Assembly: GCF_019649055.1 (NCBI RefSeq)
Contig: NW_026570233.1
Location: 124,001-188,000, forward strand
Direction: 5' to 3'
Origin: Paramacrobiotus metropolitanus
Lineage: Eukaryota; Tardigrada; Eutardigrada; Parachela; Macrobiotidae
DNA: 64,000 bases
Position 1 is the first letter of the stretch; the number at the start of each line of letters is the position of its first letter. The notes beneath the pieces were generated by a model, which saw only the letters and a list, made by a program, of their open reading frames with translations, was not told the DNA's origin and searched no databases. Positions 1,824 to 46,599 of this stretch are shown piece by piece. Made by a program: the position numbers and the translations under genes.

Positions 1824-3400
1824 ATGCCACGACCGCACGTTTATTCACCTAAACCATGCTTGCTGGTTAATTTTTTGACCGGCTTTCTTGGCATAACAAA
1901 TATCACAAATTCTAACTCTTGTACGACATTGCGAATAATCACTATCCGATTGGCGCAAATTCTGCTCATTTGCGGTGGCGTTCTTGCTACGGTAACGTAC
2001 CTAGCTGGTTATGCTGCTAAATTCATCAAAAGTGAGGGTAAACAACCGGAGCGTCTGCAGACTATCGCGTCATTCCAAGATGTCTTTACGCCTATCCGTG
2101 GTCCGCTTGTCATTATCAGCTTCTTGTTAACAAAAAACCGGCTGATAGATTTGCAAACGGCCACACAAACCTTCCTGCAAACGCAAAAGTTGACCTTTGT
2201 CGACAACTGTGCAGCAACGAAATCCACGATTATTCTACTAACCACATCCGTTGTGTTTCTACTGGTGTTTGATTTCATACAGTGGATTAAAGATGGTGAC
2301 CTTTCGGGAGTTAATATTCTACAGCAACTGGAGAATTACAGTTCAACGTTTGCGCGGTTAGGCGTTCCCCTCGTGAGATGGAAATTTTACATTTTGTGGC
2401 TGATTTGCGGAATGATGCCGTGCCTGTACTCGTTCATCATACAGTCGCTGTTTTTCTATTATTGTACTATCGTGGAGCAGGGAATCGAATCTTACTACCA
2501 ATTACTGGAGGAAATTTACCAGACGCTCTGTCGGGAAGAAAAGTTCCCGAATGTTGTGGTCAAGATTGACGAAGCCGTGGCGTTTCGACGAAATTTGCAT
2601 ATATGGGTGGAAAGTGTGAATGATGCGTTTCAGTGGATTGCGGGCGCGGCTTTCTGTGCAGATGTCGTGGTGATGCTGTTCAACACGGCTATGGTGCAAA
2701 TTCTGTCAAGCAGTCCAACGTACACTATGTTACTGGGCGTAGCTGTGTATGGATATTTTATTATTGGTTACCATTATCCGTTGATAAAGTATGGAAAAAA
2801 GGTAAGATACTTCGCACAAATAATAAGCTATGTGTAAATAACATTAATGAACTAACAGTATAAGATACAATACATGTAAAATTAAACGGTTTTTCAGATG
2901 TGCAAATTTGAGAAATACGGCTGCTACATTTTTGAGCGATGCCTTCAACACACCGGTTCCATTAATGTACGTATGAATTTGCACAAAAACCGGAATTATT
3001 GTAACAGTAAAAGACGACTATAATATGTTAGTAATCCGCAATCGGTAAAAAAAAGGCATAACTATATTGGACTATACATTTGGAACGTAGTATAAAACGT
3101 CGCAATAACGTTAATCTTTAAGTCACCCGAGCTGAGAATGCATTTGGATGCGCTGATACTCAGCGAACACCAACTGAAATTTGATATCTACGCGGCTGGA
3201 CTGCTAAAGCTGAACGGAAGCACCATAATAAAGGTACAAGGAGATTTAGTTTCGGCCTAGCAAAAGCTGATTGACGTCAGAATGATTTATTGCAGGTATT
3301 CACGTTGATTGCCACTATTAGCATTGTGGCTAACGAAATCACTAGCAGAGACCAGTCTGGTACCAAAATCCCGCCAGGTAATTGCACCTGTTCTGGATGA
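1824..3400 (+). CDS. Gustatory-receptor-like chemoreceptor 1 (subfamily A), four exons
   Basis: Predicted plasma-membrane seven-transmembrane chemoreceptor of 420 residues. Exons: 1824..2801, 2898..2966, 3123..3233, 3296..3400. All introns are phase 0 with GT-AG ends. Exon 1 carries TM1-TM6 with two family signatures, TPIRGPL near residue 90 and RWKFY near residue 187. Exon 2 is 23 codons. Exon 3 is 37 codons and starts TM7 (HLDALILSEHQLKF). The last exon reads VFTLIATISIVANEI and ends NCTCSG. The C-terminal phase-0 introns and the TM7 pattern match what is known for the gustatory receptor superfamily (7tm_7); the assignment by family is inference. The ATG at 1824 was chosen because an in-frame stop lies 15 bases upstream and the N terminus aligns with the paralogue at 14978. 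Confidence 0.82.
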
Positions 3401-4750
3401 TCCACCAACGGAATGTTGACCGTCGGGCAAAAAGTTTCTTAAAGATTCCCAGTCGTTAGTACGTGTCACATGAGTTTTTCGCTAAAATCTGCAATCCATT
3501 CTGGGGTATTTTGGCTTCAATAGGAATTCCATAATGTTGTCTCCAGAGTTATTTTAGTTTTATGGTCTTTGGGGAAAAATCATTGCAATCTTCCTCATGT
3601 TTTGTTTCATCGAGTAAAACGCATTGTCCTCGTATAATTTGTAGAGCATAGTACGGTATTTGCTCGTTTGCAAATTAACTGATTACTTAAGTATGTAAAT
3701 ATACCTTAAAGGGCAATTTAATGTTAATAATGCAACTGTTTTTGTATACAAATGCCGGAACACAGTGCAATACTAGATAATACGCAGAATAGAAATCAAT
3801 GCTACCTGTATGCGTGAAATCCTAGCATACCACTTTGATCATTGTAGAAGTAGAACAGATTCGTCTCTTGGAAACGTTCACAAGAGATATCCAACAAACC
3901 TGAAGAAACCGAATTACCGATTGCAATACGGTTTCCGGTGTGTTTTTCTGTTTCCGGCACAATCAATACTTTGGCAGTTTTACACCAATTTTCCCAGAAA
4001 GAGTAACAGGAGCTTCTGATGATCATTCGGCATTTTGTTTTTCACTCGGTCGGTTGCGCTATGTCATATATTCCGAATTAAATTGTTCTTGCCGTTATGT
4101 AATACTTTGGGGATTTGAGTTTCTTGCAATCTGCCATAGTGGCCGCTTTACTGCGATCGCTCCAGAAGATGCCGCAAGACATTTTTCTCTTGACCTGCCG
4201 GTGTGAAACGGGATAACCCAGTTGCATGCACAATTTATTTTGACATTGAGTTTATCACGAACACGTTTGAGCCAAATATCGGCGACAAAATATTTGACTA
4301 ATTTTGGCAAAGAACTCTAGAAAGCAAGAAAATGAGATATACGCTAATAAAAGGCACAAATCATACTTTTGCAGTATATGTACATCTGTTCTCGTATCAA
4401 ATGTGCGCCCATATATCGTATTTGCTTAGAGAGGATTTCGTGAGATTTTCTGCGGGTTCTGTGCTACACCTACAAAAATTACGCTGAAAAAGGTCTTTTA
4501 TACTCCAAAAAGTAGAGACAGTCGAAACTTTACCGGAAACATTATTAACGATTCAAAGAAAATTAAATGAAATTTAAAAAGGTGGGTGTAAAGTCGTGAA
4601 ATAAGTCTAATCTTCTTAGTATGATCCGTTCATGAGTATGGCATTCTAGTTCATTTGTTTTCGGTTGTGCATTTGTTTCCACTACCATAATCCAGGTATT
4701 ATCGACCGAAGCGTAGCGAAGGTCATCTATGTTCAGCGAATATGGGAAAT
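3401..4750. other. Intergenic with two doubtful minus-strand coding segments
   Basis: Two minus-strand open frames, 4095-4310 and 3802-4026, have protein-like composition (the second contains several Cys and aromatic residues). The phases of the obvious splice sites between them do not match (phase 1 donor, phase 2 acceptor), so no gene model is offered. The rest shows nothing recognisable. Confidence 0.3.
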
Positions 4751-7097: not shown

Positions 7098-8423
7098 ATG
7101 ACCGGTGCCGTTAACGACAGCATTGCTTTTCAATGGGACCATCACTGGATTGCTGTAAACTCGACAATGTCGTATGTGAGCAACATAACACATGCAACCG
7201 CCGCTAGACGACCATCTGGATGGAGTATTTTATTGAGCTTCAAAGTGCTGGTATCCATGTTGTCTTTAGTCCTTAACGTTGCAGTGCTTATCGTGCATTA
7301 CTTTGCGCGCTCGTTCGTCAACCCATTCAGCATCTACCTGCTGACGTTGTTCGCTACCAACATCTTTTACTTGCTAACGAACAGGTGATTTTTTATCTAA
7401 CAGACAATAACTATAACAGTACTGCTATCGCAAAGAATTTGATGCTGCAGTTTTTCTTAGTCGCACCGTTATGTTACGTGAAATAACACACTGAATTTCA
7501 AACAGTTTCAGAAGAACGATAATGATATTTTTTAATTATTGACCTTTAAATATAACTATTGTGCTGTGCTTAACGTTTCTATAACGGTGACCTAATACAG
7601 CAGCTGATATCTCAAAAACACGGAGAAAGTGTTACAAATGGCTGATAAAGATAACTGCGATATTAACAGAACCATCGGCATTCTGGAGGAGTTCTATGGA
7701 GAAATTCCAACCGGGAGCTTTTCCATCTGCGTCCTATACAGTTACAACCGCGTCAGCAGCGTTCTTCCCGTTGCATTCCACGTTCTCATCTCGTGCAATC
7801 GCCTGTGGGCTGTGACCTTTCCTGTCTCCTATAAGGAGCGGCACAACAAGCGCGTTGCTGCAACGATTTGTATGGCCACGGTTCTCATGGTGCATGTCAT
7901 TAACTTACCACCTTTTCTCGTCGATATGTTGTATTATTATCCTGTCTCGCGCTCGGGGCGCGCAGGCTGTGAACACGTATCGGGTGCCATGCTTGGATGG
8001 AACCAAGCCGCCAATATTGTTAATCGAATTATACCGTTGAGTTTTATCGTTATCGCTTATATGTGCATTATTTTTCTACGGTATCGGACGAGATTACGTC
8101 AAATAAGGACGGTTGCCCATAAGCAGGTAACCCTTACCCTGACGAAAAGCACACAGCAAACCGTCAACGAATGCATGAGCCTGTCGCTACAACAGAAAGT
8201 GTCAGCATCCAAGCCATCAAAACTCAGGCCTTTTATGATACTGACACTGACATCAATCAGTGTGGTGGTTTGCTGGATACCGGCTGATGTGTACTTTTGG
8301 GCAGCGATGTATTTTCGAGTGAAATATTCCGATGCCGTGTTCACCACAGTTTCCACGATGTATTCATTGCAGATGATATTCGATCCGCTGATGTGGGTCT
8401 GCAGTGTGCGCTGGAAGAGTTAA
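7098..8423 (+). CDS. Orphan rhodopsin-class GPCR, tandem copy 1
   Basis: Two exons, 7098..7384 and 7670..8423, joined through a phase-2 GT-AG intron, give 346 residues. The extracellular N terminus has N-glycosylation sequons (NST, NIT). TM1 starts near residue 40. The end of TM3 reads CNRLWAVTFPVSY, so the DRY arginine is kept but Asp and Tyr are replaced. TM6 has CWIPAD and TM7 has FDPLMW instead of NPxxY. The ATG at 7098 is the first in-frame methionine. The neighbour at 9824 has the same intron position and about the same length, so the two arose by tandem duplication. It probably couples a peptide or small-molecule ligand to G proteins; the ligand cannot be told from sequence. Confidence 0.8.
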
Positions 8424-9823: not shown

Positions 9824-11278
9824 ATGTCGTATTCTCAAAACCAGAGTACTGCACAAGTCCAGTGGACTGAGTGGAGCATGCATCCCCGCATTACTGCCAA
9901 CTTAACGGTGGCATATATGAGCAATATGACACTTATGTCCAGCCTTACACGAACTTCAGGGTGGAACGTTCCCTTCGGCATTAAACTGCTGGTTTCAATC
10001 TTGTCATTGATCTTAAACGGTGCAGTGCTTAGCGTGCATTATTTTGTTCCATCATTTGTAAACCCATTCAGCATTTATCTCCTGGCCCTGTTTGGTATCA
10101 ACATCTTCTATCTGCTCACTAACAGGTGAACCCACTTAAAATCGCCGCAAAATAATTATCTTTTGACCGTTTGGGAGTTCTCTTGGTCGTTAAGATTTGT
10201 GGCTTGTGAGAAACCCCTTTTTGTGATAATTTTCAATTTTATACAGTTTAAAAAATACAGCTTGTAATTATTATTATCAATATTATGCGAATTTCTTCAT
10301 TAGCAATTTTGGCGAACTGAATTATGGACATACGTGCATACCGTTCTTCATCATGTCCAGCCGTTTGGGCAAACTACGGTATCATTAATAAACTTGATAT
10401 TTTACTTCGTAGCTATCTTGTATGTTTCACAAACATATTCGCTAAATAAACGATACTGCTGTAATGAGACATGATAATTATTTTTTATCCTTAACTTTGA
10501 AAACACTTGTTAAAACGTCATTGACAGATCGGTCGGAATGTTGGAAGAATTCTACGGAGAATTCCCGGGTGGCTTTCCCGTCTGCGTCTTGTACAATTAC
10601 AACCGCGTCAGCAGCGTCCTCCCCGTTGCATTCCACGTTCTCATTTCGTGTAATCGCCTGTGGGCCGTGACCTTTCCTGTCTCCTACAAAGACCGCCACA
10701 CCAAGCTAGTCGCGGTGATCGTGTGCGTAGTCACGATTGCCCTGGTGCATCTCATTAATTTGCCGCCTTTTCTGGTCGATATGTTCGTTCTGTACCCTGT
10801 CCGACCGGCTGGGAAAAGCGTCTGTCTGCATGTCTCGGGTTCTATGATGGCATGGAACCAGACTTCCAACGTCCTGAACCGCGTTGTTCCATTGGTTTTT
10901 GTTTTCGTCGCGTATTTCTATATTATAGCAGTTCAATGCCGGAAGAAATTACACCAGGGTGGTGTAGGGGCCCAAATTTGTAGCACGTTATCCAGAAGTA
11001 CCCAGAAAACTGGTTTAAGTGGCTCCGCAGCACAGCAAGGTGAACATACTACCGTTTCCACGTCTAAGCGGTCAAGATTGAGACCGTTTATGGTTCTCAC
11101 ACTGACGTCAATCAGTGTGGCTATCTGCTGGATACCGGCTGACGTATACTACTTCGGAGGAGCATTCTTTCGCATAAAATATTCTGAGGCCTTTTTCAGT
11201 GCCATGTCCACACTGTACTCCTTACAAATGGTTTTTGATCCATTGATGTGGGTGTGCAGCCTTCGCTGGAGGAACTAA
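9824..11278 (+). CDS. Orphan rhodopsin-class GPCR, tandem copy 2
   Basis: Two exons, 9824..10125 and 10528..11278 (phase-2 intron of 402 bp), give 350 residues. It is a close paralogue of the gene at 7098: the same NPFSIYLL in TM2, CNRLWAVTFPVSYK after TM3, CWIPADVYY in TM6 and FDPLMWVCS in TM7. The N terminus has three or more N-glycosylation sequons (NQS, NLT, NMT). An in-frame ATG at 9686 would add 46 residues, but these align with nothing in the paralogue, so 9824 is preferred. Intracellular loop 3 is Ser/Thr rich. Confidence 0.8.
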
Positions 11279-12879: not shown

Positions 12880-14550
12880 ATGACTTGTAAAAAACAGAAG
12901 TCGAACGCTTCATACATGTGTACTCTGACATATCTGCTTAAACTCTGCGGGATTTTAGAAAAGGAAAAGAACATGAAACGCACTTCTCTGCATTATATTG
13001 TGCGGTCTTTTTTGATAATCAGCACATGTACAGTGAATGCGATTCTGGTTTACGCTAGCATAATAAGGGTCATTCGACGGGGAGGGCACATTAGCTTCAT
13101 TGCCCTGGTCGACGATTTAGAGGGTATCACTGAACCACTCCGTTCTTCCTTGATAATCATGGCCGTGACCTACGCACAAGCGCATGTTTTTCAACTAGAT
13201 GTCGCCATTCGAAGAGTTTTACAGTTTACCATGCCGGATGGGACAACCGTGCAAGCCAACGCGGACCTCGGATCACGTATGGCTTTGGGAGTTTTTATTG
13301 TCACTGTTCTATCTTATTTTCTTATCGATTTGGTAATATGGATGAGAGTGGACAATGAATTCCGCTTCACTGTCAACACTTTCCTGGATCGCAATAGCTC
13401 AACAATGGAGGCGCTGGGAATTCCGATGACCCGCGGAAAATTTTATTTGGTATTTATCTTATTGAACCATCCAGCGTTTATATACTGCAGGCTTATCCAG
13501 ATTACGTTCTTTTTGAGCGGATATGTCCTATGGTCCGGACAGAAGCGATTGTTGAAGGAACTGCGACAAATAAACATCGCTGATGGAGAGCACCATATCT
13601 GTCATAGACTGAATGTCGTAGCGGAGTTACACAAAGCATTATTCCGACTGGCTACTGCTATTAACAGATGCTTCGGATGGGTCGCGGCTGTTGCATATTT
13701 TGTTGATTCCACGACAATGTTGACATACACTGCAAATCTTAGGCTTTTATCGGACGACCCGGACTATTTTCAGATTTTTCCGACAGTTATTTTTGGGTTT
13801 ATACTGGTCGCGTTTCCCTATCCCTTTTTGAAAGTGGACTCTTTGGTAAAATTCTGAGGCACTTGGTAAAACTTATAAGAAAATAAGCCTAACTTAAGAA
13901 CAGTTGAACTTTACAGGATTCCATAATCGAAACAGAAATATGTAATTTAACATTGGAAGCTCTTCCTTTAACAACACCTTTACCGGTAAGGTATTTTAAT
14001 AAATATTCACGTTTTAAAAAATGTTGCCAGTGCAAGCTACGAGTATCAGCAACGTAGGTACGCTTGAAGCGCTTAACGAAATCTGTTTGTTTTAGGGCAA
14101 TAAAGTGAAGGCACTCTTTGAGATGTTATTGTTAGCCCAGCAAAAACTAAAACTACAAGCGACAGTCGCTGGATTTTTTAATCTGACCTGGCCTCTGATG
14201 ATAAAGGTATTTTGTATTTACCAATGCGGAAAGTACAGCACATTATCCAGACTATACAGCATGTGTTTGCAGCTTACACTGCGCATGACCTTACCTAATT
14301 AACACTAAATACAAGTACTTACATAGTTTTTGTTTGAAATCAGCCGGTTTGCTGATATTTCTAAAATTAAATATTGAACAAATCGTTAGACCTACAGAGT
14401 AACTGTAGTCGTTAGTCAAAATATCAATTTCTGTTGTTTAATCTGCAGACCGTGGCACTTATTGCATCCATAACCGTACTGGCCAACGAATTCATATCAA
14501 AGGGCTCTGTCGACATTCACCAAAAGACGAAAACGAATACCACATCTTGA
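12880..14550 (+). CDS. Gustatory-receptor-like chemoreceptor 4, four exons
   Basis: Exons 12880..13845, 13917..13985, 14096..14206, 14449..14550; 415 residues, all introns phase 0. Exon 2 is 23 codons and exon 3 is 37 codons. The TM7 exon pair reads LLLAQQKLKLQ then TVALIASITVLANEF. The family motif EPLRSSLII is present, but the usual RWKFY reads RGKFY, a tryptophan-to-glycine change at an otherwise near-invariant site. There are alternative in-frame ATGs at 12916 and 12973; 12880 gives an N terminus of the usual family length. The gene lies in a same-strand run with the receptors at 14978 and 16892. Confidence 0.8.
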
Positions 14551-16509: not shown

Positions 16510-16891
16510 TCCTGACGTTCCCAACAAATATTAATAACTTTTCTTTGTTTGATGGTGCTGGCAGAGTTCTCTACCGGGAATCAGAGTAGCACGAAAAATA
16601 GTGCTTCAAATAATCCAACACTACGAGTGCATACATTGTGTAACCAAGGTTGGGGAACTGTTTTAGCCGGGCAATTGTAAACAATAAACCCGTCAGTTTA
16701 CAAAGTGTCAAATGTCTTGATCAAATGCACACTGATGTTTCAGTACTTTTTATCCGGAAGGCAACATGTTTCGCTGTGCAGGAAAGGGAAAGTGCAAGAA
16801 GAAAGGAGAAAACTTTAAAATTTAGTGCTGCTGTCGGTACAGTTGTACCTCAGATCTCGAAATTTGTCTAAAGTTAGAACTCTCATAAACG
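16510..16891. other. Intergenic spacer
   Basis: 382 bp, nothing recognised. A 73-codon frame at 16650-16871 has no family resemblance. Confidence 0.45.
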
Positions 16892-17498
16892 ATGGTAATA
16901 GTGTGTCACATGGCCGATAGAAAGATGCCTCTAAATAAGATAGATTCTACAGAGAAAAAAGAACCGGTCGATCCTAACATTATCCGATTTTCGAGATTTT
17001 TATTGCGGTTCCTCGGCATTAATAGCTCCTGTTCAAATCATGTTCGCTGTACGTTTCACCTTTTTGTACGGGTATTCTTATTATTAAGTTCATTGACGAT
17101 GAGTGGAGTGTACACTGGAGGGCTCGTGGTAAAATTTTTGCGAATCGGTAGCAGAGTTCCCATCACTGATATAATCACCTACTTTGAAAGCATCATCGAG
17201 CCTATCCGTTCTCCGCTCATAATCATCGCGTTCTTCTGTGCGGAAAGACACCTTTCATGCCTGGAAACTGCGTTGCGCCGGGTTCTGTTTTATTCTTTCC
17301 AAGACGGTTCCAATACAGTCGAACGTGCTAAACGCGGCGTTCGTAATGCGCTAATAATGTTTAACGATGTATTCGAGAAACGCTGACATGGTTTTGTAAG
17401 CATATGGCTGGCCTCACTCGGCTGCGGAGTCTCGGAAAACGTCAGAACATGCTCGGCCACCGGAAGGAGCGTGTATACGTGTTATGGAAAGCAGTGTC

Positions 17499-17630
17499 AC
17501 CTGGTCCGTGGCCAGGTGACCCTGATTCGTGGTCAGGGGTCGAAGACACCTGATCGTGCATTGCGGGGTGATACCCCTGATTCGTGGCCAGGGAGTGAGC
17601 TGGATCCTGATACGCGGCCAGGATGTCAGG
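17499..17630. repeat. Short tandem repeat with palindromic units inside the DIRS-like element
   Basis: Four to five imperfect copies of a unit like CCTGATTCGTGGCCAGG at irregular spacing. Several units contain their own inverted repeat (CCTGG and CCAGG). It lies in the 3' non-coding part of the decayed element. Confidence 0.6.
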
Positions 17631-17877
17631 CTGCCTTCCGGTGCGGTTCTGTGCAAGTAACATAGCGAGAGAGCAGCGCGAGTGAGTAATGGCCTTTAAT
17701 GAGTTTCACACTGGTGCTGCTATAACTAACGAAGTCAACAAGACAAGAGTTAATTGCTAAAGGGTTGGGAAGGCGGGTAACAGGAAAATTGCAATTGCGT
17801 AAGCTCTCCAATTGCGTAAGCTCTTCGGTAGATAAGTAGCCACTCCGGCGGCGAAAAGAGCGCCGGCGTCGAGGTTG

Positions 17878-19393
17878 TTATGGGAGGCTCTTTCCGATGA
17901 GGAATGGTTTCAGCCGTAAGCAGATCCGGTACCGACATACCGTTGGCGTCCGCTGAAGGATGGAGCTGACGAAAACGTTGCAACTGGAATCGAGACAATG
18001 CGTCAGCAGTGCTATTATCAACGCCAGCGATGTGCGTAATTCTAATAATAAAATTAAACCGCGCCGTAACAAAGAATTCTGCGTATGAGCTCCATCACCG
18101 CTGGTTCCTACAACTGCCAGCTGACCATGTCTGAGCTGTCGCTGTATTATCGCAATGAAAAGCACTCGTTTTCCGCACAGCTGTTCATTCCAAATAACGC
18201 ACGCTACATAGATTGGGTACATTTCCAGAAACGTTATCGGTGGGTTCACTTTAGCAGCCAACCCGGCCACGCGCCCTGGAACCACTCATTACCGAGCGTG
18301 CCTCCAAACCCATCGCTCCTGCCGCGTCAGTGTACAGATGTAGTACGCTTGCCGGTAACCATTCTGGTTGTACAAAGCCGGCCGTCCCGTTCCATGCCGG
18401 TAAGAACTCCTCCACCACGCAACATCACGACGGAATCCTCCGTCAGTGTAACTGGTGATACAGCCGATTCACCTTGCAGCTCAGTTGAATCATGCGTCTC
18501 AAAAATATTCGGCTGGCCGGTATACATTTCGTCACAAATGACAGCTTACCAATCAAGTCAAAAGTTCCTGTTTTGCATTGCGTACATGCGGAAAAGCTTT
18601 CGAGTAACTCTGTTAACTCTGCTAAACGAGCGGCCGACAGATAAGGTAAAGCTTTCACTGTTGATCTCTACACCGAGAAATTCAATTACCGTAGCCGGAC
18701 CCACCAACTTTTTTCTCATTGATCGGAACACCCAAATACTACACACTGACTGAACCTGCATTACTAACCGCCCACATGCCCAACTTGCTGCTTTACCGCA
18801 CATGAAAAATCGTCCAAAAAATGAAGAAACGTATCACTTCCCGTACACTTTTGAATATCCACTCGAGCATGCGGGCAAAGGTGTCGAACAAATACGGGCC
18901 TGAACGTAAACCGAACGGGACTACTACATCATGGTAAAACTGCCCTTCCATTCGTATCCCAGCAAATGCCAATCGCTCTGCCTGACTGGTAAATTACGAA
19001 ATGCGCTCTCAATGTCTACTTTTGCCATTAACGATCCCCGCCCATGAAACATCACCATTTAACTGCATCATCTACGCCTACGTAAGTTAGCGAATACTTA
19101 TCTTTCGGAATAAAATCATTCACGCTCAGTCCGAATGGTTGCGACAGATCCATAATAACTCGATGGCCTGACGGTCGCTTCGGGCGCAGCCCAAGTGGAT
19201 TCACAAACAAAATTCGGATGTGGCTGCACTTTAAATGGACCCTTGCATGATTGGCTTGCACCTCCTTCATGATCATTGCGGTGATGACCTGTGGATCTTG
19301 GAGTGCTGAACGTGCGTTTGCGGTAAACCGGCGCACTTGTGGGCCGTTATATCCGATTGCAAAGCCAAACCTGAAACCCTGCAATAGAAACAC
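17878..19393 (-). pseudogene. Reverse transcriptase-RNase H remains of the DIRS-like element
   Basis: The segment 19393-19052 aligns by eye with the intact element's RT N terminus (FAIGYNGP, then DLSQPFGLSVND and VDDAV). The segment around 18800-18560 has EFLGVEI, and 18658-18443 has IGKLSFVTKCIPASRIFLRRMI, matching the RT connection region at 53.5-53.7 kb. The segment 18285-17900 has FLEM and an RNase H-like core. These pieces lie in different frames separated by frameshifts. The YMDD catalytic box was not found in an open frame. Confidence 0.75.
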
Positions 19394-19419
19394 ACAGCCT
19401 CACGGTCATCATGCTCTAC

Positions 19420-20582
19420 CAGTAATTCAGCGAGTCTCCGTCGGAAACGGGCGTCGCCACCTCCGGCCTTGGCGTTAGTACTACTGGCAGGCTTATGCTG
19501 GGCTGAATCGTGCTCGTGGACGGTGTGGTCGGCCGCCCTGCATGTTCCACACAAGTGCTTGAAGCGGCAGTTCGAACCGTTGGTGCATCTCCGTTGTTCC
19601 AGTTCCTGCACAAGTCTGTGGGATGTGTCGAAAGGGCCGATCCCTTTGCGTCTTTCTGTCCCTGTGCAGTGATCTGGAGCTTTTTCGGGCAGTCCTGATC
19701 TGTATGGTCCGCAATGCTGCAGTCGCGACATAATGGCAGATGAGCGAAGCGGATGCCTGGCTATACAGCGGTCCAGCAAGTTTCGATCCAGCAGGTTCCA
19801 CTGATCATGGTTAGTGACATCACGGATGCGGCAGGCACGAAAAGTCTTATCATACTCCAACCACACTGGCGGCAGGTAGACACCTGCCATTTCAGTCATA
19901 ATCATGGTAAGAATCGAGCGGTTGCTGAAGAGCGGGATAGTAATAACTGCGCACACGGCGAAACACAATAAATGCTTCGTTCACAGAGTGAACGAGGTAA
20001 TCGTAATCTTCTTCGGCTTTGAATCAGAAAGAATAAAGTTTCCATCCCTAATCTCGAATTTAGCTTCCTGAATCGGCGACATGATGGTATTTGCTCTAAG
20101 CAATTTATCAAGTCAACGTTCACCGTAAGATCGTACAGTTCTTCAAGACATTTCACTGACAATTGGGAACCCAGCCGGCAACGGTGGCGGTTTCTTACTG
20201 TTACCTCGCTCCGGTGTTGGTGGATGGCGCCGCCTGGGCCTCGTTGACCTTCTGAGTAAGCTGGACAGCTTGATTCTGCTGATTCATCGCGAGCTCAGCT
20301 ATAGTCGTTTCCGTCGGTGGTGGCTGTGGAGGCTGTGGTGGTGGGGCCTTGATGTCGACAAGACAGGGATGACGTCCGCATCCTTCTGCGCTAACAACGA
20401 CTGCAAATGCTGCCTTGCCATGGCAATCTGAGAATCCAGATCTCCTGTGCTTCCCGCGCCAGTACTTCCACCAGATGCCGTCGGACGGGTAATAGGGTTC
20501 GCGCGCGCACGCGGACGGCCGCGAGCTGGCCGTGTCGCAGGCGGTCCCGGCGCATTGATCTCCTACCGCGCCGTCCAGTCAT
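19420..20582 (-). pseudogene. Gag-like remains of the DIRS-like element
   Basis: The minus-strand frame 19968-19273 contains LEYDKTFR and a Cys/His knuckle (CTNGSNCRFKHLCGTC) typical of DIRS-type gag. The N-terminal part, read from about 20580, is Arg/Pro rich and broken by frameshifts. The order gag then RT on the minus strand agrees with the intact element at 51-56 kb. Confidence 0.65.
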
Positions 20583-22230
20583 GCTTTATGTGAAAACACA
20601 ATGCTGACAACAACGATAACAGGAAAATTGCAACGTTAACTTTCAATGATCAACATCCAATTTTGACACACACGAAAAGTGAGGATAACAGGCAAAGGAC
20701 TCGCACATGCCGAAAAACACCAATGCGATAAATACAACTAGGCCAGCGTGAGATAGAACTGACGGTTAGGTAGTCCAGGCAAAAGGCAGTTTGCACACCG
20801 TCCGCACAGGAAAGGCAGGCGATTCGCTGGCACACATGCTGGTGCTACATTCCAGGAAGGAAGAGAAAATGCATCTGTCGGTTCGCTCAAAGTCCGGCGG
20901 CTAATCTTTAATGTCCTGTGCAGAAAGAGAGTAGCTCTTGCCGGCGTTTCTCTCGCATCGTTAAAACAAGTTAGCGATTAAACGCTAACTTCAATTAGTG
21001 GTGTGACTCTCGCATATTATACTTGGAACTTAATTACTTGGACGACGACCGACAATACTGATTTTAGGTTTGAATCCTTCTGGAATCAGATCAGTCCCAC
21101 GTTTGACTTGCTCGGTGTTAAATTAATTCGATGGAAGTTTTATTTAATGTGGTGCTTGCTTGCTTTACCATCGTTTGTGTATGCAATTGTCATTCAGACG
21201 CTGTTTTTCTTGAGCGGATACATTCTCCGTTCAGGGCAGAAGTTATTTCTGCTTCAGCTGCGGCAAACTACTGTTGCCGATGGAAGCCAGGAATTCTGCA
21301 ACAAACTGCAGCTTCTGTTGGATTTCCACAAGGCGTTATTCGGATTAGTGGAAATAATCAATTCGGCGTTTGGATGGATTGCCGCCGTTGCGTTCTATGT
21401 GGATGCGGCGGCCATGTTAACGCATAGCGCCGGGGCCAAACTACTGTCGACCAGCTCGACGCAATGGTTTGAATTTTCTGGGACGGCGATTTTCCTCCTA
21501 ACCATGATCATCTTTCCCTACCCATTCCTAAAGATCAATGAAACCGTATGAATTTATTGTAGCACTCTGTAACTACGTACCTTTTAGTGACCGCTTTCAA
21601 ACAGAAAATAAACATTGTCTTTGAGAGCAAAACTCGTTACCCTTGTCATAATTGTTAACTGATGCGTAAAAAATTGTCATGTTTTTTAGGATCACATTAT
21701 TGAGACCAAATTATATGTCCTGTCGCGAGAAGCGTTGCCTCTGTTTTCTGCACCGCAGGTACTATTTTGAGCAATCTGAAGGACTACACAAACCTTGCTG
21801 CGCCGACTCGTTGTATTACATTTCATCGACTGCAAACCAAATTAACCTGATAATTAAGCCTTTTTCAGGGGTCGGAAGTGAAGCTACTGTTGGATATGCT
21901 GCTTCTTTCACAGCAGAAGCTGAAACTGCAATTAAAAGCCGGTGGATCGTTTAATTTAACATGGTCATTGATGACGAAGGTGATGTCTCCAGTACTTTCA
22001 GTTTTATTTTACGCATTCCTCATAAAACTGCAATTCAGCCACAATCAATTTTTCCATTTTTTAAAATTTTATGTACCGTATCTGATCCCTTGACCTTCTT
22101 TATGAACTTGTGGTTGTATCTGCAGACGTTCGCCTTGATTGCTTCAATTACTGTGATCGCCAACGAACTCATCTCCAAAGATGACAGTATTCAGCAAAGG
22201 CTGCAGAACTCCAGCTCCTCATTTCAATGA

Positions 22231-23184
22231 ATGAAAACGTGTCCCATGTCCTGGCACAGGACGAACAAAGATGACTGTTTCATCACATTTCATTTGCAAC
22301 GGAACTACGTTAGCAATATAATTGGTTTGTCTTTTTGTTAATTCTCTGCTTCTTCGACTCTTCAGGACTTGTAAATGGCTGTGTAAAGCCGTATTTAGGA
22401 AAGTTCCTGTTTCTGTGTCCCTTAGCAAAATCCCACATTTGTAAGTAGTGTGCACCAGCAATTTCAAGGCAAGTGTACAATTTAATCAAGTCCAAAACAA
22501 TAAAACTATGAAACTTTCAAAAGAGGACTTAAAATTACGATAATTCGCAGCACAACTAACTTTCGTCATTTCCTTCGTGTCAACCAATTGTGAAACAAGA
22601 GTGTTACTGACGACATTTTAAAGACACAAAAAGGTTTTTGCAGTACCGCCTTGTTTTAAATTTCTGAGCAGAAAAATACAGTTGCAAGCTCTACTTGGTT
22701 GCAACATGAGCTTAATAAAATATTTCTCTAATTCCACACGACCAAATTTAAATACATGTCAAAGACTTCTCATGTTGGTTCATCATGCTGGGAATGACGG
22801 CATTCCTGCTATGTCATGCCTCCAGAGGCAGATGCGTTACGTAACGGAAAGCTGGTCAACAGCTTGCTTCCTCTAGGTGTGTGATAAATAATTTGTCCAG
22901 CTAAGCACGACCTGGGACCACCGGGAGGCCTTCCTGCCTCTCCTTTACGTGTCTTGTTTTCCTTCTTGAGCGAGACAATTTTTCATCGCATCCAGAGAAT
23001 TCCCATCAGAATTTTTCTGTAGGAGTTACGAATGTATGTTTTACTGAATGCATGTTTTACTCTGCGCGGAGTGCAGCACGGTATAACGGTTTTCCTGACA
23101 GTTATTTTTCTAGCTAGGTAACTTTTACTAGTATGGGCCTCGATTTTTTATTAAATTAATAATTGCGCATAAATAGCCTAGAAA
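22231..23184. other. Intergenic, no gene recognised
   Basis: Between receptors 5 and 6. No coding exon supported on either strand. Confidence 0.5.
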
Positions 23185-25011
23185 ATGACTTTAGAAAAGG
23201 TTGAATGCACAAGCAGCAAACAACCAGCAGAATATAGTATTATTCGGTGTGCAACAGCTATGTTGAGATGCCTCGGCATAACCACCAATATTTCAAAGCG
23301 TTTTTATGTCCATCATCTGGTACGCGCCATCCTGCTGGCGTGCTCACTGACAATCAGCGGGTTCTTCCTGGGTGGATTGGTTATGAAATTTCTTCGCATT
23401 GATGGGCGTGTTCCTCTCGCAGATATCATCGTATACCTCACCGGTATTATTCAGCCACTACGCTCCCCGATTTTGATAGTGGCATTCTGCTTTACCGAAA
23501 AGCATTTATCTGGAATAGTTGCTGCTTTTAAACGGGTACTACTGTTCCCTTTATATCACGGTACGAACACGGCTGAGCTGGCTAAAAACGGCGCGCATAA
23601 TGCTTTAACGATTCTGGTCGTCGTGATTGCTGTGTATTATATATGGAATTTGAGCACGTGGGTCACTTCGGAAACAGCAGTTATAAATTTACGACACTAG
23701 TTACCACAGTCAGTCCCACTATGCAGTCATTCGGAATTTCATTGGCTTTGTGGAAATTTTATTTAATTTGGTGTATCCTGGCACTGCCGTCGTTTGTTTA
23801 TGTGACAATCATTCAAGCTTTAGTTTTTCTCTGTGGATACGTTTTGCGATCAGGGCAAAGCAAGTTTCTGGAACAGCTACGAAAGGTCAGCGTTGGGGAC
23901 GGCCGACAAGAAGTTATGAAAAAACTGCAAGTTCTTCTGGATTTTCACAAGGTGTTGTTTGATTTGGCTGAAATCATCAGTCATGCGTTTGGTTGGATTG
24001 CCGGTATTGCGTACTACGTGGATGCAGTAGCTGTGCTAACGTATACCGCGACTACGAATATCTTGTCGGGCAACCCACTTTGGATCGAATTTTTTGGAAT
24101 GGCTTATTTTTTTACGACAATGGTAACGTTTCCTTTTCCGTTCTTGGAGATCGATCAGACAGTAAGTCAACTTTTGTGTTATGCAACAACTTCTGTTTTC
24201 AGTTCAAATGTTTAAATGTTCCATTCAAATGCAAACAGACCATTTTCAGGATTGCATTAGCGAGACTGAATTATGTATGCTCTCCCGAGAAGCGCCACCA
24301 CTGTGCTCTTGGCCGGAGGTATGCTTATTCCTTGCAATTGTTTCTGTATAAAAAGGTTTAGGGAAGGATTAGGTCTAACGATTATACAAACTTTACCGGC
24401 CGCCAGGATTTTGCATACACCTTTTGCGTAGACGTGGAGTCTGGTCGTGCTTACCAGCAAATCACAGTTCCACATTGTCAGACTAACTCGTCTCTTTTTT
24501 TCCATAGGGATTCGACCTGAAATTACTGTTGGATGCCATGCTACTTTCCCAGCAAAAGCTCAAGCTTCAAATCAAAGCTGTGGGATCATTCAACCTAACA
24601 TGGTCCTTAATTGTTAAGGTACTGTACAGAAAACGGTGGATAAAATGAAAATTTTGTGTCGCTAATTGCAATTTTTTTCCCCTGCTATGCCACCATGAAC
24701 TCTAAGAAATTTAGAGCTTGTCATTTTCATCGGTTCATTGTTTTACTTTAAAATTCATACCAGCTTAAGCTTAATTATTCAGCTGCGATGTGAATTATTT
24801 GGCCAAAAATGTTTTGAATACACCTGCGTAATTACAGTAGTGCAGCATTAGGGCTCACATGCCATTAGCTCCTGTGAAATTTTTCTCTGTTATTTTGTAC
24901 ATGCAGACGGTTGCTTGGATTGCATCTATCTCCGTAATAGCCAACGAGCTGATGCCGAAGGATGACAATATCCAACAACAATTGCGGAACTGCAGTTTTC
25001 CGATTACTTGA
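23185..25011 (+). CDS. Gustatory-receptor-like chemoreceptor 6, four exons, one frame break
   Basis: Exons 23185..24161, 24250..24318 (23 codons), 24508..24618 (37 codons), 24907..25011; about 420 residues if one base is added. Motifs: QPLRSPILIV, LWKFYLIW (the usual Arg is Leu), LLLSQQKLKLQIK, TVAWIASISVIANEL. In exon 1 the frame changes near 23675-23682, between the WVTSET stretch and KFTTL. Paralogues show a continuous tyrosine-containing segment there, so one base, probably in a TT pair, is missing. Whether that is an assembly error, an allele or a true pseudogene cannot be told here. All splice sites are GT-AG and phase 0. Confidence 0.75.
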
Positions 25012-27610: not shown

Positions 27611-29185
27611 TCACGCTGACAAGCAGTTGCAGGTGCAGTTCCGAAAATTCTCCCCGGAACTGTCATCGCTTGAGATAAGTTCGTCGGCAACAACAATGAT
27701 GGTCGCGACGAGAGCAAACGTCTTGAAACACGAAAAACAAAATAATACAAGGTTTAGGTGAAGTCATTGCACTCAAAACTGTATGAAACTGCAATGTTAG
27801 CGAAATGCAGTGAGTAAAATACCTTTATCATTAAAGACCAGGTTAGATGCAGTGATCCACCGACTCTTGCTTGAAGTTTCAACTTTTCTTGAGAAAATAC
27901 CAAAGCCGTTAACAGTTTCCTGACGTCATCGCTCTGGAAAATTGTTTTCGCAATTCAGTCATTTTTTATTAGCAGCTCGTATGCCAAAAAGATCGGAGTA
28001 CGCAGTTTTGAAGATCGAAGTACACATTCGTATGTCTGCGTGCCTTGAAGTACCTGCTCAGACATTGCACGTAATGCCGCATCTCGAGATAAAACGTACA
28101 GTTGAGTGCTCACAACAACGTCCTGCAAAATAATTTAATGGTGATGTAGTATATCGTCAAAAGTTTCTGGGGCTGTACATAATTATAATCACCGTTGCAT
28201 CGATTTCTAAGAACGGTAGCGGAAAGGCAATCATAGTCCATCCACTCATAACTGCCCCTATAAACTGTATCCACTCAGGGTGATTTGACAGCAGCCTGGC
28301 GGCAGCGACATGTGTCAGCATTGTAACAGAGTCCAGGTAGTAGGCAGCTGCCGCGATCGATGCAAATGATTTGTTGATGGTTTCAGACAACTCAAATAGA
28401 GCTTTATGAAAAGCTAAAAGGTCATGCAGTTTTTGTAAGAATTGTCCCCTTCCGTCTGACACGCTGACCTGCTGCAACTTTTCGAGAAAGTACAATTGAC
28501 CTTTATGCAGGACATAACCACTGATGAAATACAGCGACTGCACAGTGATGCCATAAATAAACGGCAGAAACACTAAGGCGCACCAAATTAAATAAAATTT
28601 CCACCGGACTAACGATATCCCCAGTAAAAGAAGCGTTGGACTGAAATTATCAGTCAACGTGTTAAAATTGTATGCTTTGTCATCAATAGTGGTCCAGGAG
28701 GCCGAATTCCAGAGATAATAGCCGATGGTTATGAAGGCGAATAAAAGCATGGTTTTATGCGGATCATTCTTTAATAAAGGAACAATGTTTGCGCCATCAC
28801 AGAAAGCAAAAAAAATTACTCGGCGGAGAGAATCGTTCAGTTGTGACAGATGTCTCTCAGCACGCCAGAGCGTTAGAATGATGATCGGAGAACGTATAGG
28901 ATCAAAAATCAAGGCAAAATAAGAAATTATGTCGGTAAACGGAAGACGCCGGCCGCTTTGTATGAACTGCATTGCCACAGCAGCAGCACAGATAGCGCTC
29001 GTTGACAAGGAGCCCAGAAACAGGATTATTCGTATTAAGTAATGCAATCGTGATCGGTATTTTAATGCTGTATTTTTGGGATCAACAGCCGGTATACCAA
29101 GTAATCCAGACAGTATTTCAACGGTCCGGATGATGACTGGTCGTTCAACGAATTTCGCTTTCATTTTGTAATCTAAACTTATCAA
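27611..29185 (-). CDS. Gustatory-receptor-like chemoreceptor 7, four exons
   Basis: Minus strand, exons in order 29185..28193, 28122..28054 (23 codons), 27933..27823 (37 codons), 27721..27611; 427 residues. No frame breaks and all introns phase 0. Motifs: DPIRSPIIIL, SLVRWKFYLIW, the 37-codon exon with LVFSQEKLKLQ, and the last exon TFALVATIIVVADEL followed by a Cys-rich tail (NCTCNCL). The usual asparagine of the ANE motif is aspartate here. It is followed on the same strand by receptor 8 upstream (29818-31363), so the two form a tandem minus-strand pair. Confidence 0.83.
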
Positions 29186-29817: not shown

Positions 29818-31363
29818 TTAAAGGGAAGCACACGAGCAATTTTGAAATATTTTGTGGGAGACGTCGTCCCTGGATGTCAACTCGTTCGTAATGATGGTGA
29901 TGGATGCCAGCAAAGCAAATGTCTGGAATATAACAAAAAAATAAAAGAGTATAAGATATGTCCTATTGCACAAGCGTGAATTCACCTTGAGAATCAGAGA
30001 CCACGTTAGACGAATCGAACCACCGGCTATCGTTTGCAGTTTCAGCTTAGCATGCGAACGTGTCAGTGTGTTCAAAATAACATGTAAATCGTTCCCCTAA
30101 GGGTATAAAATTGCTGTTGTAATCTGGAAAGATTTTATGTTAAGGTATGGCGATTATACATGCTTTACCTGCGAATTAAGAATAAGTGACATAGCGTCTT
30201 GAGACTGAATGCAAAGCTCAGCTTCAATCGCGGAATCCTAAAAACACGCACATATTAAGTACGCACTACAAGCATGGCACAGCAATGGTAGCATAGGAAA
30301 ATTCTACTTCAACCCATACATTCTTATCAATCTGCAGAAAAGGAAAAAGAAACGCGATCATGGCTACAGCAAAGTACACTGCTCCGATCACTTGGACCCA
30401 ATCTGGTTTATCGGACAATAGTCCGGCTTCGGCGATGTGTGTTAGAAACTGGAAAGAATCTGCACTGTATGCAACAACTGCGATCCACCCGAATGACTGA
30501 TCGATTATGTTAGATAACTCGAACAAAGCTCTATGGAAATTCAGAAGCACCCTCAAATTTTGCTGGAGCTTTTCCCGGCCACCGACGGCGCGAAGTTGCC
30601 GCAGCTGATTTAGAAACTGGCATTGACCTTTGTACAAAATATATCCACTGAGATAAAACGAGGTCTGTATAACAAGAGTGTACACGACTGGTATCAGTGG
30701 TATGTAAGAAAGAGTGCACCACAGTAAGTAAAACTTCCACCTCGTCCACGCTATCCCCATCTCTTGCATGGTAGGACTTATCTGATCGGTTAGAGATCCG
30801 ATACTGTATACCTTTTCTCCCACGTTCAGCCATGCGCCAAAGTCCCAGAGAAACAATAACCAGGAAAGACCCAGGAAAATTATTACAGCATTACGGGTGC
30901 CATACTTTACGGAATGCACCGTGTTTAGGCCACCAGGAAGTGGGAAGCACAAAACGCTTCGAGTAGCGTTTTCCAGCCGCGATAGATTCTGGTGGACACA
31001 GCAAAATATAACGATCATAACTGAGGAGCGTAAAGGATGAGCAATTGACGTGACGTAAGAAAAGATGGTAACAAATGGTGCACGCCTGCCATTGTGAATG
31101 AAATGCATTACTAGAGAGAAGGCGTAAATTGTGCTGATGGAGAGTGCACTTAGTAGTAAAATCAGCCGCACAATACAGTGGAAGCGTGATCGCGTGCATC
31201 CTTTTTCATGCCCCTCCTGCTGGGTAGGTGTGCCAAGAAATCGCGCTAAGATAATAATTGTTTGGAGGACATTTGGTTGTTCAGCTGATTTAGATTCCGT
31301 TGAGCTCATTTTCTCTGGAGTACAAATTGTCGACGGTGTCGTTATGCAGCAAGACATGACCAA
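29818..31363 (-). CDS. Gustatory-receptor-like chemoreceptor 8, four exons
   Basis: Minus strand, exons 31363..30320, 30237..30169 (23 codons), 30096..29986 (37 codons), 29922..29818; 442 residues, the longest of the set. Motifs: HPLRSSVMIV, AWTRWKFYLLW, TLTRSHAKLKLQ and TFALLASITIITNEL. The first exon has a longer N terminus; the ATG for MSSTES 18 codons in is an equally good start and would bring it to the usual length. It is divergently arranged with receptor 9, whose ATG lies 410 bp away on the other strand. Confidence 0.83.
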
Positions 31364-31773: not shown

Positions 31774-33441
31774 ATGGACAGGATGAATAACGAAGTTTCC
31801 AAAACGCCAAGAATCTTATGGATTACCAGGTTAATTTACAAGATTCTTGGCGTAGAAGTGCGGATTAATCTTGTCAAGGAACACTGGAAGCGAATGGTTC
31901 CATCGTGTCGTGCGTTTCCTTCTTTTCTGCAGTTCTTTGGTGATTAGCCGTGTGTACGCGTCTGAGCTGTTAACACAGTTTGTCCGCACTGGCAACCGGA
32001 CTGCGTTCGGGGAGGTCATGTATTATCTGGAGGACATTATTCAACCAATGCGCCCCCCACTTATAATTCTGGCGTTCTCTAAAGCGGAAAAGCATATATC
32101 CAAACTGGATGAGGCACTGCGTCGTGTTTTATTTTTCCCACTCTGCGATGGCAGCCAAACCATTATACGCACACGGAAAGGTGCTTGCACTTTGCAGTGC
32201 CTTGGTCATTTTCTGCGGATTAGTTTTCCTGTATTGCTTATGAAGTGTTAGCGAATGGGGCAAAGCAGATAACAAATTACAATGGGATTTCGATATACTT
32301 CTCAATAACACCAGCCCAACATTGGAAGTCCTCGGGATAAAGGTGATGCGATGGAAATACTTCTTACTGTATAGTGTACTCACCTTTCCCTCGGTCGTAT
32401 ACTGCATGTTTATCCAAACGCTGTTTTTCCTGTGTGGTTTCGTTCTTGGGAAAGGTCAAGAGCAATTGTTAAAACAACTGCAGCAGATTGCAATATGGTG
32501 AAGATTTATGTGAGAAAGTACACATGCTTTTCCAGTTTAACACCTTATTTGAATTAGCCGAAATGATCAATGCTACCTTTGGGTGGATCGCAGCAATGGC
32601 ATACTGTGTAGAGGCAGTGGCCATGTTAACCCAAACTGCAGGCGCAAAAGTGCTGTCGGCAGAGTCCAACTATTTTGAACTAGCTGGAACGGTGATGTTT
32701 GGATTAATAATGGTGACATTTCTATACCCGTTTTTGCAAATCCATCACCGGGTAAAGACAATAATTATTTTTAAAATTAGGTTCTGTTGGACTGTTATTG
32801 TAAAACACAGAACATGTCATCAGGATGACACAATCCAGACTGAAGTATGCCAGCTGTTATTCCGGAAAGCGATCGCCACTCCGGAAATAGAGGTAAGTTT
32901 TCCTTTAAATAGCAGATTTATTTACTACTGCAGGGCTTTGAGCTGGGCGCTTTGGTCTACGGAGACAACAAAACAAAACCTAAAATAAACAACCGTTAGG
33001 AAACGTTGTTTAGAGGTCCAAAAGCAATCATCCACAGCATCAAATTTGTTGATAGGGCAAAAGACTGAAGCATCTGCTGGAAAGCTTTCTACTGGCCAGC
33101 CAGAACCTGAAATTACAGATGGAAGCAGGCGGATTTTTTTATATAACGTGGTCATTAATGTTGAAGGTATGTTTTGAAGGTATATAAGGTGAAGGTTAAT
33201 CAGTATGTGCAGTATATCTGGTGAGCCTCTTAATCTCATGAAAATCAAATCCTGATCCTGTCGTATCTTTTCCTGTCAAACGATATCAAACTGATTTTAA
33301 GCAAGCACTCATGTTTTGTTGCAGACATTTGCTCTTATCGTTTCCATTAGCGTGTTGGCAAAAGGAATACCGGTACCATACCATCCATTGACGAGGCCAC
33401 CTTTTTATGGGCTCCTTCGAATTTTACGGCATCCTAATTAG
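31774..33441 (+). pseudogene. Gustatory-receptor-like chemoreceptor 9, pseudogene
   Basis: All four exon equivalents are present: exon 1 31774..32751, 32824..32892 (23 codons), 33056..33166 (37 codons) and 33325..33441. Exon 1 changes frame three times (near 31865-31890, 32180-32190 and 32485) and has an in-frame TGA at 32241-32243. The last exon loses the ANE motif and reads on to a late stop in another frame. Recognisable motifs remain: QPMRPPLIIL, MRWKYFLLY, FLLASQNLKLQ. Splice sites are still GT-AG, so the decay is recent or the gene has lain unexpressed. Three separate frame changes and a stop are too many to blame on sequencing error alone. Confidence 0.85.
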
Positions 33442-34053: not shown

Positions 34054-34119
<66 letters not shown>

Positions 34120-44272: not shown

Positions 44273-44906
44273 AAGTAGCCGTAAAGAATGTTGCTTATGA
44301 TGACACATACACGGAATAAGCACTTAAATGTAATTTGTATTGGAGACGGGGAGCGTTTTGTTGCTAGCCTGCTTCAGGCCATCTGGACGGGATCTGACAC
44401 AAAAATATTAAGTTCAACGAAATAAATGCGCTTTAAAATTTACGCGACGGAGAATAGGGATGTAACCATACCATCAGATAGGTTAATTAGACTGCGTAAT
44501 CTACCAGTCATGTCATCCATAGTAATCCTTGCTGCAAATTAACTGCAGAAACAGCAGAAATGTTGAGCATGTTTGATAACCGGCGAAATGCGAATGTGGT
44601 GCTTTAACTCATCGAAGTCTGGCCCCTTTGCACAATATCACTGACAATCACCAAGGGATTGCCCCACACAGGAATACAATTGAGCTGCAGGTTATCTAAA
44701 GGCAAAGTGAATAAACCGATACTTCAGGATACATTGGACCGGGAACCCTGTTCCCAGCCTACAAACGCTTAAATTACAAAGTTTCAATCGGTCCTTGCAT
44801 TTACAGCTGGGAAACCTTTCACGAAGGTTACTTTATTCAGTGACTGTGCGTGGCTTTGTACAACTCTACTCGTACGATAGATAAATCAGGCATTTAGCGG
44901 AGCAGA
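44273..44906. other. Intergenic, no gene recognised
   Basis: Upstream of receptor 10. Nothing recognised. Confidence 0.5.
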
Positions 44907-46599
44907 ATGCCAGAAACAAAATTAAGGATGAACGGAAGCAATAAACTTTCTCTGACTTTTTTTGCCAATCGCGTGGAGACCGTACCAGGAAGAGAAAATG
45001 GTGGCGAGAACCCAACAGTTTTGGAGTTAAAGATACTAGTCCGTTGTTTACTACGCTTCTTGGGAATCTCACAGTCAGAGCAACAGAACCCGCTGCATGG
45101 TTGTGTGTTCCGACTACTGCAGATTGTCGTTTTCTGCAGTTCCTCTGTAATTACCACCTTCTACATGATCTCGATGGGTGTTACGCTAAAGGAGCTGCAA
45201 GGTAAAGATCTGGAACTGGGTGATGTGCTACGCACCGCTTTTTTACTCTTACAACCGGCACGTAGCTGCCTGTTAATTATAGCGTTACTTGCTGGGAAAA
45301 AGCATATGCACAGCATAGAGACCAGCGTGAATGCGGTTCTGGATTTCCAGCTTTTGGAAGCGCAACCGGAGCATGGTATTCGATTTACTGTGAAACGAGC
45401 ATTTGCTGTTATCATCACGGTTATTATGGGGTTTGTTTTGTGGGACTTTTTTACATGGCTAGGTATGGATGATGTCCATTACAGTCTTTTAGAATTAACC
45501 AATGCTACAAGTCCAACATTCGAAACAATGGGCATCAGTCTGGTGCGATGGAAATTCTATCTTGTATGGCTCGCATTAGGCTTGACATCGTTTGCTTACT
45601 CCATTGTCATTCAGTCCTTAGTCATTGTTTTGTGCCATGTTCTGAAGAAAGGTCAAGAAAAGTATAATCATCAGCTGTGTTCCTTACACTTGTCTAACAA
45701 CGTTTCGACGCTCAGCGTAAAACTAGCGGCATTGTTACAATTCCGTGACGTATTGCTGAACCTGTCTGACAACATCAGCACATCATTGCGATTTGTTGTG
45801 ACTACTGCTTATTTATTCGATGCTGCTCTCATGCTGATCAACGCTTATACATCCAACATTCTGTCTGTCCAGCCCAAATATACGCTGTTAGCCGGCGGGG
45901 CCGTGAACGGGTTTCTGCTTATTATTTTCTGCTATCCGATTGTGAAGTTGGACTTGTTGGTGAGATCCATAAAATAATTTATAAACACAGACTTCCCCTT
46001 TTAAATGTCTGTATAACAGCAACAGTTCTAACTAGAATTGGCAATTTCATCAGTTACTGTTACAAGATGTATTTTCATCCGTTTAAAGGAGAGAAAATCA
46101 CGGAACATTTTTATTTATTTTTGTTACCTCATAAAGAATGTTCCTAATTACAGGAATCCGAAACTAAGATGTTGCTATATAAATCCATTCAGATCAACAG
46201 ACGTTTGATTTTGAAACATGAAGTAAGGCCGTCTCAAATTTAGTGCCACTGCTTCGCAAACACAGAAATATCACTGTATTGAACCAAAGAAGCAGTTTCT
46301 CTGTTAGTGTCATCCACCTCGTGAGCATACCGGAAATGAAGAAACGTTTGTTTTCGATACTATAGAACTCCGAAATCGATCGGCTGATAGGAATGCTAGA
46401 AAAGCACCACAAACTGAGGCTAGGATTTTCTGGAGATCTCAACATTACCGGATCGCTTATGGTCAAGGTACCTACCGGTGCATAAGTTAAGCCATAATTT
46501 AGCTCTAACTCTCAAGTTTAAGCGGTGTGTCCTTTGCAGACGTTTGCTTTGATTGCGTCGGTACTGATTCTAGCAAGAGAATTCCTAAGAAGACAATGA
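44907..46599 (+). CDS. Gustatory-receptor-like chemoreceptor 10 (divergent), four exons
   Basis: Exons 44907..45959, 46154..46222 (23 codons), 46366..46467 (34 codons instead of 37), 46540..46599; 427 residues. Introns are phase 0 and there are no frame breaks. Motifs: QPARSCLLII, SLVRWKFYLVW, the divergent exon 3 ending LNITGSLMVK, and a short last exon TFALIASVLILAREF that ends about 15 residues earlier than in paralogues. The ANE motif reads ARE. It is the most diverged member and lies apart from the main cluster. Confidence 0.8.

What the first reader, a model, noticed from the sequence alone, without database searches (positions are those of the whole stretch)
1824..46599. Ten gustatory-receptor-like genes share an invariant four-exon plan with 23- and 37-codon exons
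Seen directly: in all ten genes, on both strands, the exon after the long first exon is exactly 69 bp and the next is 111 bp (102 bp in receptor 10), all phase 0, despite low sequence similarity between subfamilies. Shared signatures are PxR(S/G/A)P before TM3 and RWKFY in the middle. Known for gustatory receptors (7tm_7): conserved phase-0 introns near the C terminus. This looks like a lineage-specific expanded chemoreceptor family, possibly little described in this phylum.
Basis: partly seen in the sequence, partly recalled or inferred. Interest (0 to 1): 0.8.

Follow-up and report, generated by a model that had tools for sequence, protein, structure and literature searches.

The report
Tardigrade taste-receptor genes with altered gate
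Ten neighbouring genes in a water-bear genome belong to the insect taste-receptor channel family; their shared exon pattern is mostly the known ancestral one, but most of them carry an acidic residue where insect receptors usually keep a glutamine at the channel gate.

Summary
All ten genes have a 69-bp second exon; the third is 111 bp in nine and 102 bp in R10, all phase 0. R4, R5 and R8 are damaged; R9's last exon lies about 1.9 kb downstream.

By assembly statistics the genome is Paramacrobiotus metropolitanus, a tardigrade. The genes belong to the gustatory-receptor (7tm_7) family: four of nine models and the R8 C terminus pass the Pfam cut-off; the last intron lies six codons before the TM7 motif position, as reported for most Daphnia, insect and nematode relatives; a C-terminal profile aligns without gaps to MhOR5 (E 2.3e-4). 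So the exon plan is an inherited Gr plan.

Less expected: the residue matching the gate glutamine of insect receptors (Gln443 in BmGr9) is glutamate in 8 of 10 window genes and in 26 of 40 scored models elsewhere, clustered on a quick tree with at least four E/Q changes. In BmGr9, Q443E raises activity (PMC11062906 passage). Acidic variants are already listed for animal GRLs (PMC7746228 passage).

The parts
1824..3400 (+). R1: exons 1824-2801, 2898-2966, 3123-3233, 3296-3400; S7b motif TISIVANEI
   Evidence: 7tm_7 28.0 bits, cut-off 26.6
12880..14550 (+). R2: exons 12880-13845, 13917-13985, 14096-14206, 14449-14550; motif SITVLANEF
   Evidence: 7tm_7 35.5 bits
14978..16509 (+). R3: exons 14978-15973, 16043-16111, 16211-16321, 16408-16509; motif TISIAANEI
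   Evidence: 7tm_7 45.3 bits, E 9.6e-12
16889..22230 (+). R4, damaged: exon 1 in two pieces (open frames 16889-17386 and 20982-21545) around an insert; exons 21690-21758, 21869-21979, 22126-22230; motif SITVIANEL
   Evidence: 7tm_7 28.5 bits for the downstream part
23182..25011 (+). R5: frame break near 23690; exons 2-4 at 24250-24318, 24508-24618, 24907-25011; motif SISVIANEL
   Evidence: downstream part 7tm_7 21.2 bits, below cut-off
27611..29164 (-). R6: exons 29164-28193, 28122-28054, 27933-27823, 27721-27611; motif TIIVVADEL
   Evidence: no Pfam match at E<=1; matches R7, E 3.3e-77
29818..31357 (-). R7: exons 31357-30320, 30237-30169, 30096-29986, 29922-29818; motif SITIITNEL
   Evidence: no Pfam match at E<=1
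31856..33441 (+). R8, damaged: exon 1 in three frames; exons 2-4 at 32824-32892, 33056-33166, 33325-33441; motif SISVLAKGI
   Evidence: C-terminal 75 aa match 7tm_7 with 32.7 bits
33837..37143 (-). R9: exons 37143-36163 (donor GTTATTGA), 36100-36032, 35943-35833, 33941-33837; motif SISVITNQI (Q)
   Evidence: no Pfam match at E<=1 when scanned without exon 4
44907..46599 (+). R10: exons 44907-45959, 46154-46222, 46366-46467 (102 bp), 46540-46599; motif SVLILAREF
   Evidence: no 7tm_7 match at E<=1
17387..20981 (-). retroelement-like insert in exon 1 of R4, frames broken; exact ends not determined
   Evidence: ORFs; CCCH zinc-finger match below cut-off in 19273-19980

Best explanation
The ten genes are a tandem, birth-and-death cluster of gustatory-receptor-family (7tm_7) genes of the tardigrade Paramacrobiotus metropolitanus. 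Each intact gene encodes a seven-helix subunit, by homology one quarter of a tetrameric ligand-gated cation channel used for chemical sensing. Exon 1 encodes helices S1 to most of S6, exon 2 the end of S6, exon 3 S7a and the start of S7b, exon 4 the pore helix S7b. The exon lengths stay fixed because these helices form the anchor and pore, which tolerate few insertions. In most of these genes the gate glutamine is replaced by glutamate, which should put an acidic ring at the outer mouth of the open pore and ease opening. Shown: gene anatomy by homology and splice signals, family membership, intron position, the residue difference. Inferred: the exon-to-helix assignment, the tetramer, ligand gating, chemosensory use, the reason for fixed lengths, the effect of the glutamate.
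For: 7tm_7 over cut-off in R1, R2, R3 and the downstream part of R4, and in the C terminus of R8. Exon 4 starts six codons before the motif position in all ten window genes, as published for almost all Daphnia Grs and most insect and nematode relatives. A spliced search that requires this arrangement found a model in 42 of 50 other loci, 39 of them at 30 or more, against 0 of 49 opposite strands and 0 of 150 two-base-block shuffles (slightly different training set). A 42-column C-terminal profile of 30 genes finds MhOR5 (E 2.3e-4), ungapped, with E opposite chain residue Q471, which I take as Gln467 by a 4-residue offset. The relative L025 aligns ungapped to a solved Gr chain, 8vc1, with Q opposite Q, but only at E 0.11. 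Hydropathy: seven windows with more K/R on the inner side in R2 and R9. Clustered places and damaged copies.
Against: R6, R7, R9 (without exon 4) and R10 have no 7tm_7 match at E<=1 and R5 is below cut-off. The window profile A1 found no solved structure at E<=1. Strict TYhhhhhQF is absent from all ten. Hydropathy gave 6 or 8 windows in R1, R3, R6, R7 and R10, with the K/R bias the other way in R1, R3, R6 and R10. No transcripts, structure or function were seen.
Confidence: 0.85

Rival explanations
1. They are Gr-related channels with a non-chemosensory role, for example light sensing or development.
For: Relatives with such roles are known: C. elegans LITE-1 and light (start of the abstract of PMC13419714, listed); a cnidarian homologue in body patterning (title of Saina et al. 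in a reference list). No tardigrade function data were seen.
Against: Clustered arrays with damaged copies and low identity between members fit chemoreceptors better.
Confidence: 0.15
2. They are G-protein-coupled receptors, not Gr channels.
For: Rhodopsin-like GPCR gene pieces lie beside them.
Against: The receptor models match 7tm_7 or nothing, and none matches 7tm_1 at E<=1; introns and C terminus align with Grs/ORs.
Confidence: 0.02
3. The glutamate is a tolerated variant with no effect on gating.
For: The animal GRL motif is given as (T/S)Yhhhhh(Q/K/E)(F/L/M) (PMC7746228 passage); K, G and D also occur here; at least four E/Q changes; in MhOR5 the change of this glutamine to asparagine had little effect (PMC8410599 passage).
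Against: E is found in 28 of 32 rows on one side of a supported branch; in BmGr9 Q443A inactivates and Q443E enhances (PMC11062906 passage).
Confidence: 0.45

Closest known systems
Insect gustatory receptors (7tm_7; BmGr9, Gr43a)
   Same: Pfam match in several members; S7b region alignable without gaps for a relative in this genome; [quoted passage not shown]
   Different: Gate Q is E in 8 of 10 window genes; motif Y is I or V in all ten; a polar or charged residue stands just before the gate position
Daphnia pulex Gr family (PMC2680840 passages)
   Same: Three C-terminal phase-0 introns in most members; lineage-specific subfamilies
   Different: Daphnia Grs are recognised by TYhhhhhQF, and 49 genes share an extra mid-gene intron
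Insect odorant receptors (MhOR5, Orco)
   Same: The C-terminal profile finds MhOR5 (E 2.3e-4) and, weakly, Orco (E 0.12-0.36)
   Different: No 7tm_6 match in the nine window models; the relative L019 matches 7tm_7 far better than 7tm_6
Animal GRLs
   Same: The loose motif (T/S)Yhhhhh(Q/K/E)(F/L/M) includes E (PMC7746228 passage)
   Different: The window genes lack the Y

Membership tests
Gustatory receptor family (7tm_7) | Pfam 7tm_7 over its cut-off | tested here: inconclusive
   Met by R1, R2, R3 and the R4 part, 4 of 9 models, plus the R8 C terminus; not met by R5 (below), R6, R7, R9 and R10 (no match), which join by homology to the others
[quoted passage not shown]
   10 of 10 window genes; rule from PMC2680840 passages
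Gustatory receptor family (7tm_7) | Strict motif TYhhhhhQF (the motif is called diagnostic but not definitive in PMC7746228) | tested here: not met
   0 of 10 in the window; position fixed by intron and ungapped profile alignment
Gustatory receptor family (7tm_7) | Seven helices, N terminus inside | tested here: inconclusive
   7 windows and N-in bias in R2 and R9; 6 or 8 windows in R1, R3, R6, R7 and R10
Gustatory receptor family (7tm_7) | Tetrameric channel fold | not testable with these tools
   Structure prediction switched off
Gustatory receptor family (7tm_7) | Ligand-gated cation current; expression in sensory cells | not testable with these tools
   Needs experiment
Insect odorant receptors (7tm_6) | Pfam 7tm_6 | tested here: not met
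   No 7tm_6 match in the nine window models scanned at E<=1

The most novel reading that the evidence does not exclude
Much of the tardigrade Gr repertoire has an acidic gate: a glutamate ring at the position of BmGr9 Gln443 biases the channel toward opening and makes it sensitive to external pH or calcium, with apparent returns to glutamine as natural controls.
Probability: 0.25. Interest if true: 0.6.

Novelty: new variant of a known kind. Interest (0 to 1): 0.42.

Why it matters
Tardigrades are close relatives of arthropods, so a large intron-conserved Gr set helps trace how chemoreceptor channels diversified. The E/Q variation offers natural variants at a residue shown by structure and mutation in insect receptors to take part in gating, so its role can be tested directly.

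Tried and rejected
The window profile A1 gave no solved-structure hit. A broader exon-1 profile gave mosquito OR10 at E 6.4e-4, with OR28 (0.29) and Gr43a (0.92, 0.94) among eight hits, the other four being designed proteins. The single protein L025 gave only unrelated weak hits. The C-terminal profile also drew two short S100 hits (E 0.053 and 0.28), apparently by chance. I first took R9 as lacking exon 4 and dropped that. My first exon-1 ends were off by one (corrected). I first thought the glutamate unprecedented; PMC7746228 lists E among animal GRL variants.

Rows dropped: of 50 loci fetched for the TM7 count, 42 gave a model of 12 or more (43 models, L004 gave two); three below 30 (L060 G, L061 E, L065 E) are not in the 40; 8 loci gave none (L003, L007, L015, L027, L032, L057, L058, L067), nor did the plus-strand gene of L002, whose exon 4 by regular expression has E. 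L001 was dropped from the tree for want of an open frame; R8 and R9 were not put in. A second set of 14 loci, chosen after the first results, gave six models of 30 or more (E 4, Q 1, D 1), five lower (L068 Q, L069 Q, L071 E, L075 E, L078 E) and three without a usable one; it is not in the 40. The score matrix was trained partly on the genes counted, and both the regular expression and the matrix require exon 4 to start six residues before the motif, so that spacing is not an independent result of the count.

Papers: passages from find searches only of PMC9998090, PMC2680840, PMC11100771, PMC11062906, PMC8410599, PMC11191345, PMC7746228, PMC8277472 and PMC9136957; a find search without hits in PMC5531438; search listings otherwise. 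Vizueta et al. 2020 is recalled; Robertson 2003 and 2015 are known only as cited in these passages.
Full report
What is there. I rebuilt all ten genes from the sequence. Exon 2 is 69 bp in 10 of 10, exon 3 is 111 bp in 9 of 10 and 102 bp in R10, and the junctions are phase 0. R4, R5 and R8 are damaged in exon 1. R9 looked truncated until its exon 4 was found at 33941, beyond an intron of about 1.9 kb with inverted repeats. Length coincidence alone would mean little, since AG-69-GT/GC open stretches occur 321 times on the two strands; the aligned homologous copies do.

Where it comes from. G000 has 169,799,020 bases in 533 contigs; its longest contig is 4,484,719 and contig C51, in an apparently size-ordered list, is 1,033,953. 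I did not compute its N50. The published Paramacrobiotus sp. TYO assembly has 170,483,395 bases, 684 scaffolds, longest 4,484,941 and N50 1,033,707 (PMC8277472 passages); PMC11191345 gives 170 Mbp, longest scaffold 4.48 M and N50 1.0 M for P. metropolitanus. I take the genome as this tardigrade; the identification rests on these statistics alone.

What it is. Pfam 7tm_7 is over cut-off in R1, R2, R3 and the downstream part of R4 and in the R8 C terminus, below it in R5, and without a match in R6, R7, R9 (scanned without exon 4) and R10. Those tie in by homology to the others. The genome holds 36 7tm_7 places at E<=0.001. The searches are capped and split genes can merge or count twice, so these are rough.

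The exon plan. [quoted passage not shown] In the window exon 4 begins six codons before the matching nine residues in all ten genes. In a search that requires this spacing, 42 of 50 other loci gave a model, 39 of them (40 models) at 30 or more; 49 opposite strands and 150 shuffles gave none. A 37-codon exon 3 is an option in 21 of 43 models: the 12 clade models, L014, and eight from other lineages; others offer 33-36, 38 or 52-55 codons, and two have no acceptor in the range looked at. A 23-codon exon 2 is an option in 10 of 12 clade models outside the window. I did not establish exon 2 in the other lineages. Options are splice dinucleotides in frame, not proven exons.

The gate residue. Profile A4 aligns to MhOR5 without gaps, E opposite Q, and L025 aligns to a solved Gr chain, 8vc1, Q opposite Q, though only at E 0.11. 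The R4 C terminus and L025 both extrapolate to 7tm_7 position 365 for this residue. It is E in 8, Q in 1 (R9) and G in 1 (R8) of 10 window genes, and E 26, Q 11, K 1, G 1, D 1 in 40 models elsewhere. On a tree of 47 rows built without the exon-4 columns, one side of a branch (15 rows) has Q 9, E 5, other 1 and the other (32 rows) E 28, Q 2, other 2; SH-aLRT is 99 and at least four E/Q changes are needed. It is a quick tree, with several long branches, 14 of 44 inner branches unresolved and no bootstrap; the root is unknown, so the direction Q to E is inferred from the insect consensus.

How it likely works. In BmGr9, Phe444 closes the pore and Gln443 turns in when fructose binds; Q443A inactivates, and Q443E raises activity and apparent affinity (PMC11062906; PMC11100771). 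By analogy the tardigrade glutamate should favour opening. Against a strong claim: E is listed for animal GRLs (PMC7746228), Q-to-N had little effect in MhOR5 (PMC8410599), other residues occur here too, and neighbouring positions have changed as well (Y lost, a polar or charged residue before the gate position), so single-residue effects may not carry over.

What could not be tested. No structure prediction, no transcripts, no other tardigrade genome. Hydropathy supports seven helices with an inner N terminus in R2 and R9 only.

Verdict. The natural glutamate variants are the more useful lead.

Noticed in passing
window 7608-8423, 10514-11278, 47485-48111 (+); 56717-57631, 62074-63021 (-): Five rhodopsin-like GPCR gene pieces (7tm_1 over cut-off) lie among and beside the Gr genes; the first two and the last two look like neighbouring pairs.
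   Followed up: partly
window 51877-55646 (-): A retroelement with reverse transcriptase (RVT_1 over cut-off) and a tyrosine-recombinase-like frame (Phage_integrase E 2.5e-5, below cut-off); the label DIRS-like is recalled.
   Followed up: partly
window 17387-20981: Broken retroelement-like insert inside exon 1 of R4.
   Followed up: partly
window 34122-35171: Nested inverted repeats (longest arms 245 nt, 87% complementary) inside intron 3 of R9.
   Followed up: partly
L068, L069, L070, L071 (G000 C41, C145, C234, C19): Four of the six places matching the odorant-receptor model 7tm_6. Candidate TM7 exons of the first three read TY...YQT at the Gr intron position (scores 29.3, 18.8, 31.8) and the fourth SFVIVVREV (22.0), so they look like Gr-family members rather than insect-type ORs; the search assumes that position.
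   Followed up: partly
L008, L011 and window R9: Members of the mostly-E clade with Q at the gate position, possible reversions (R9 is not in the tree).
   Followed up: partly
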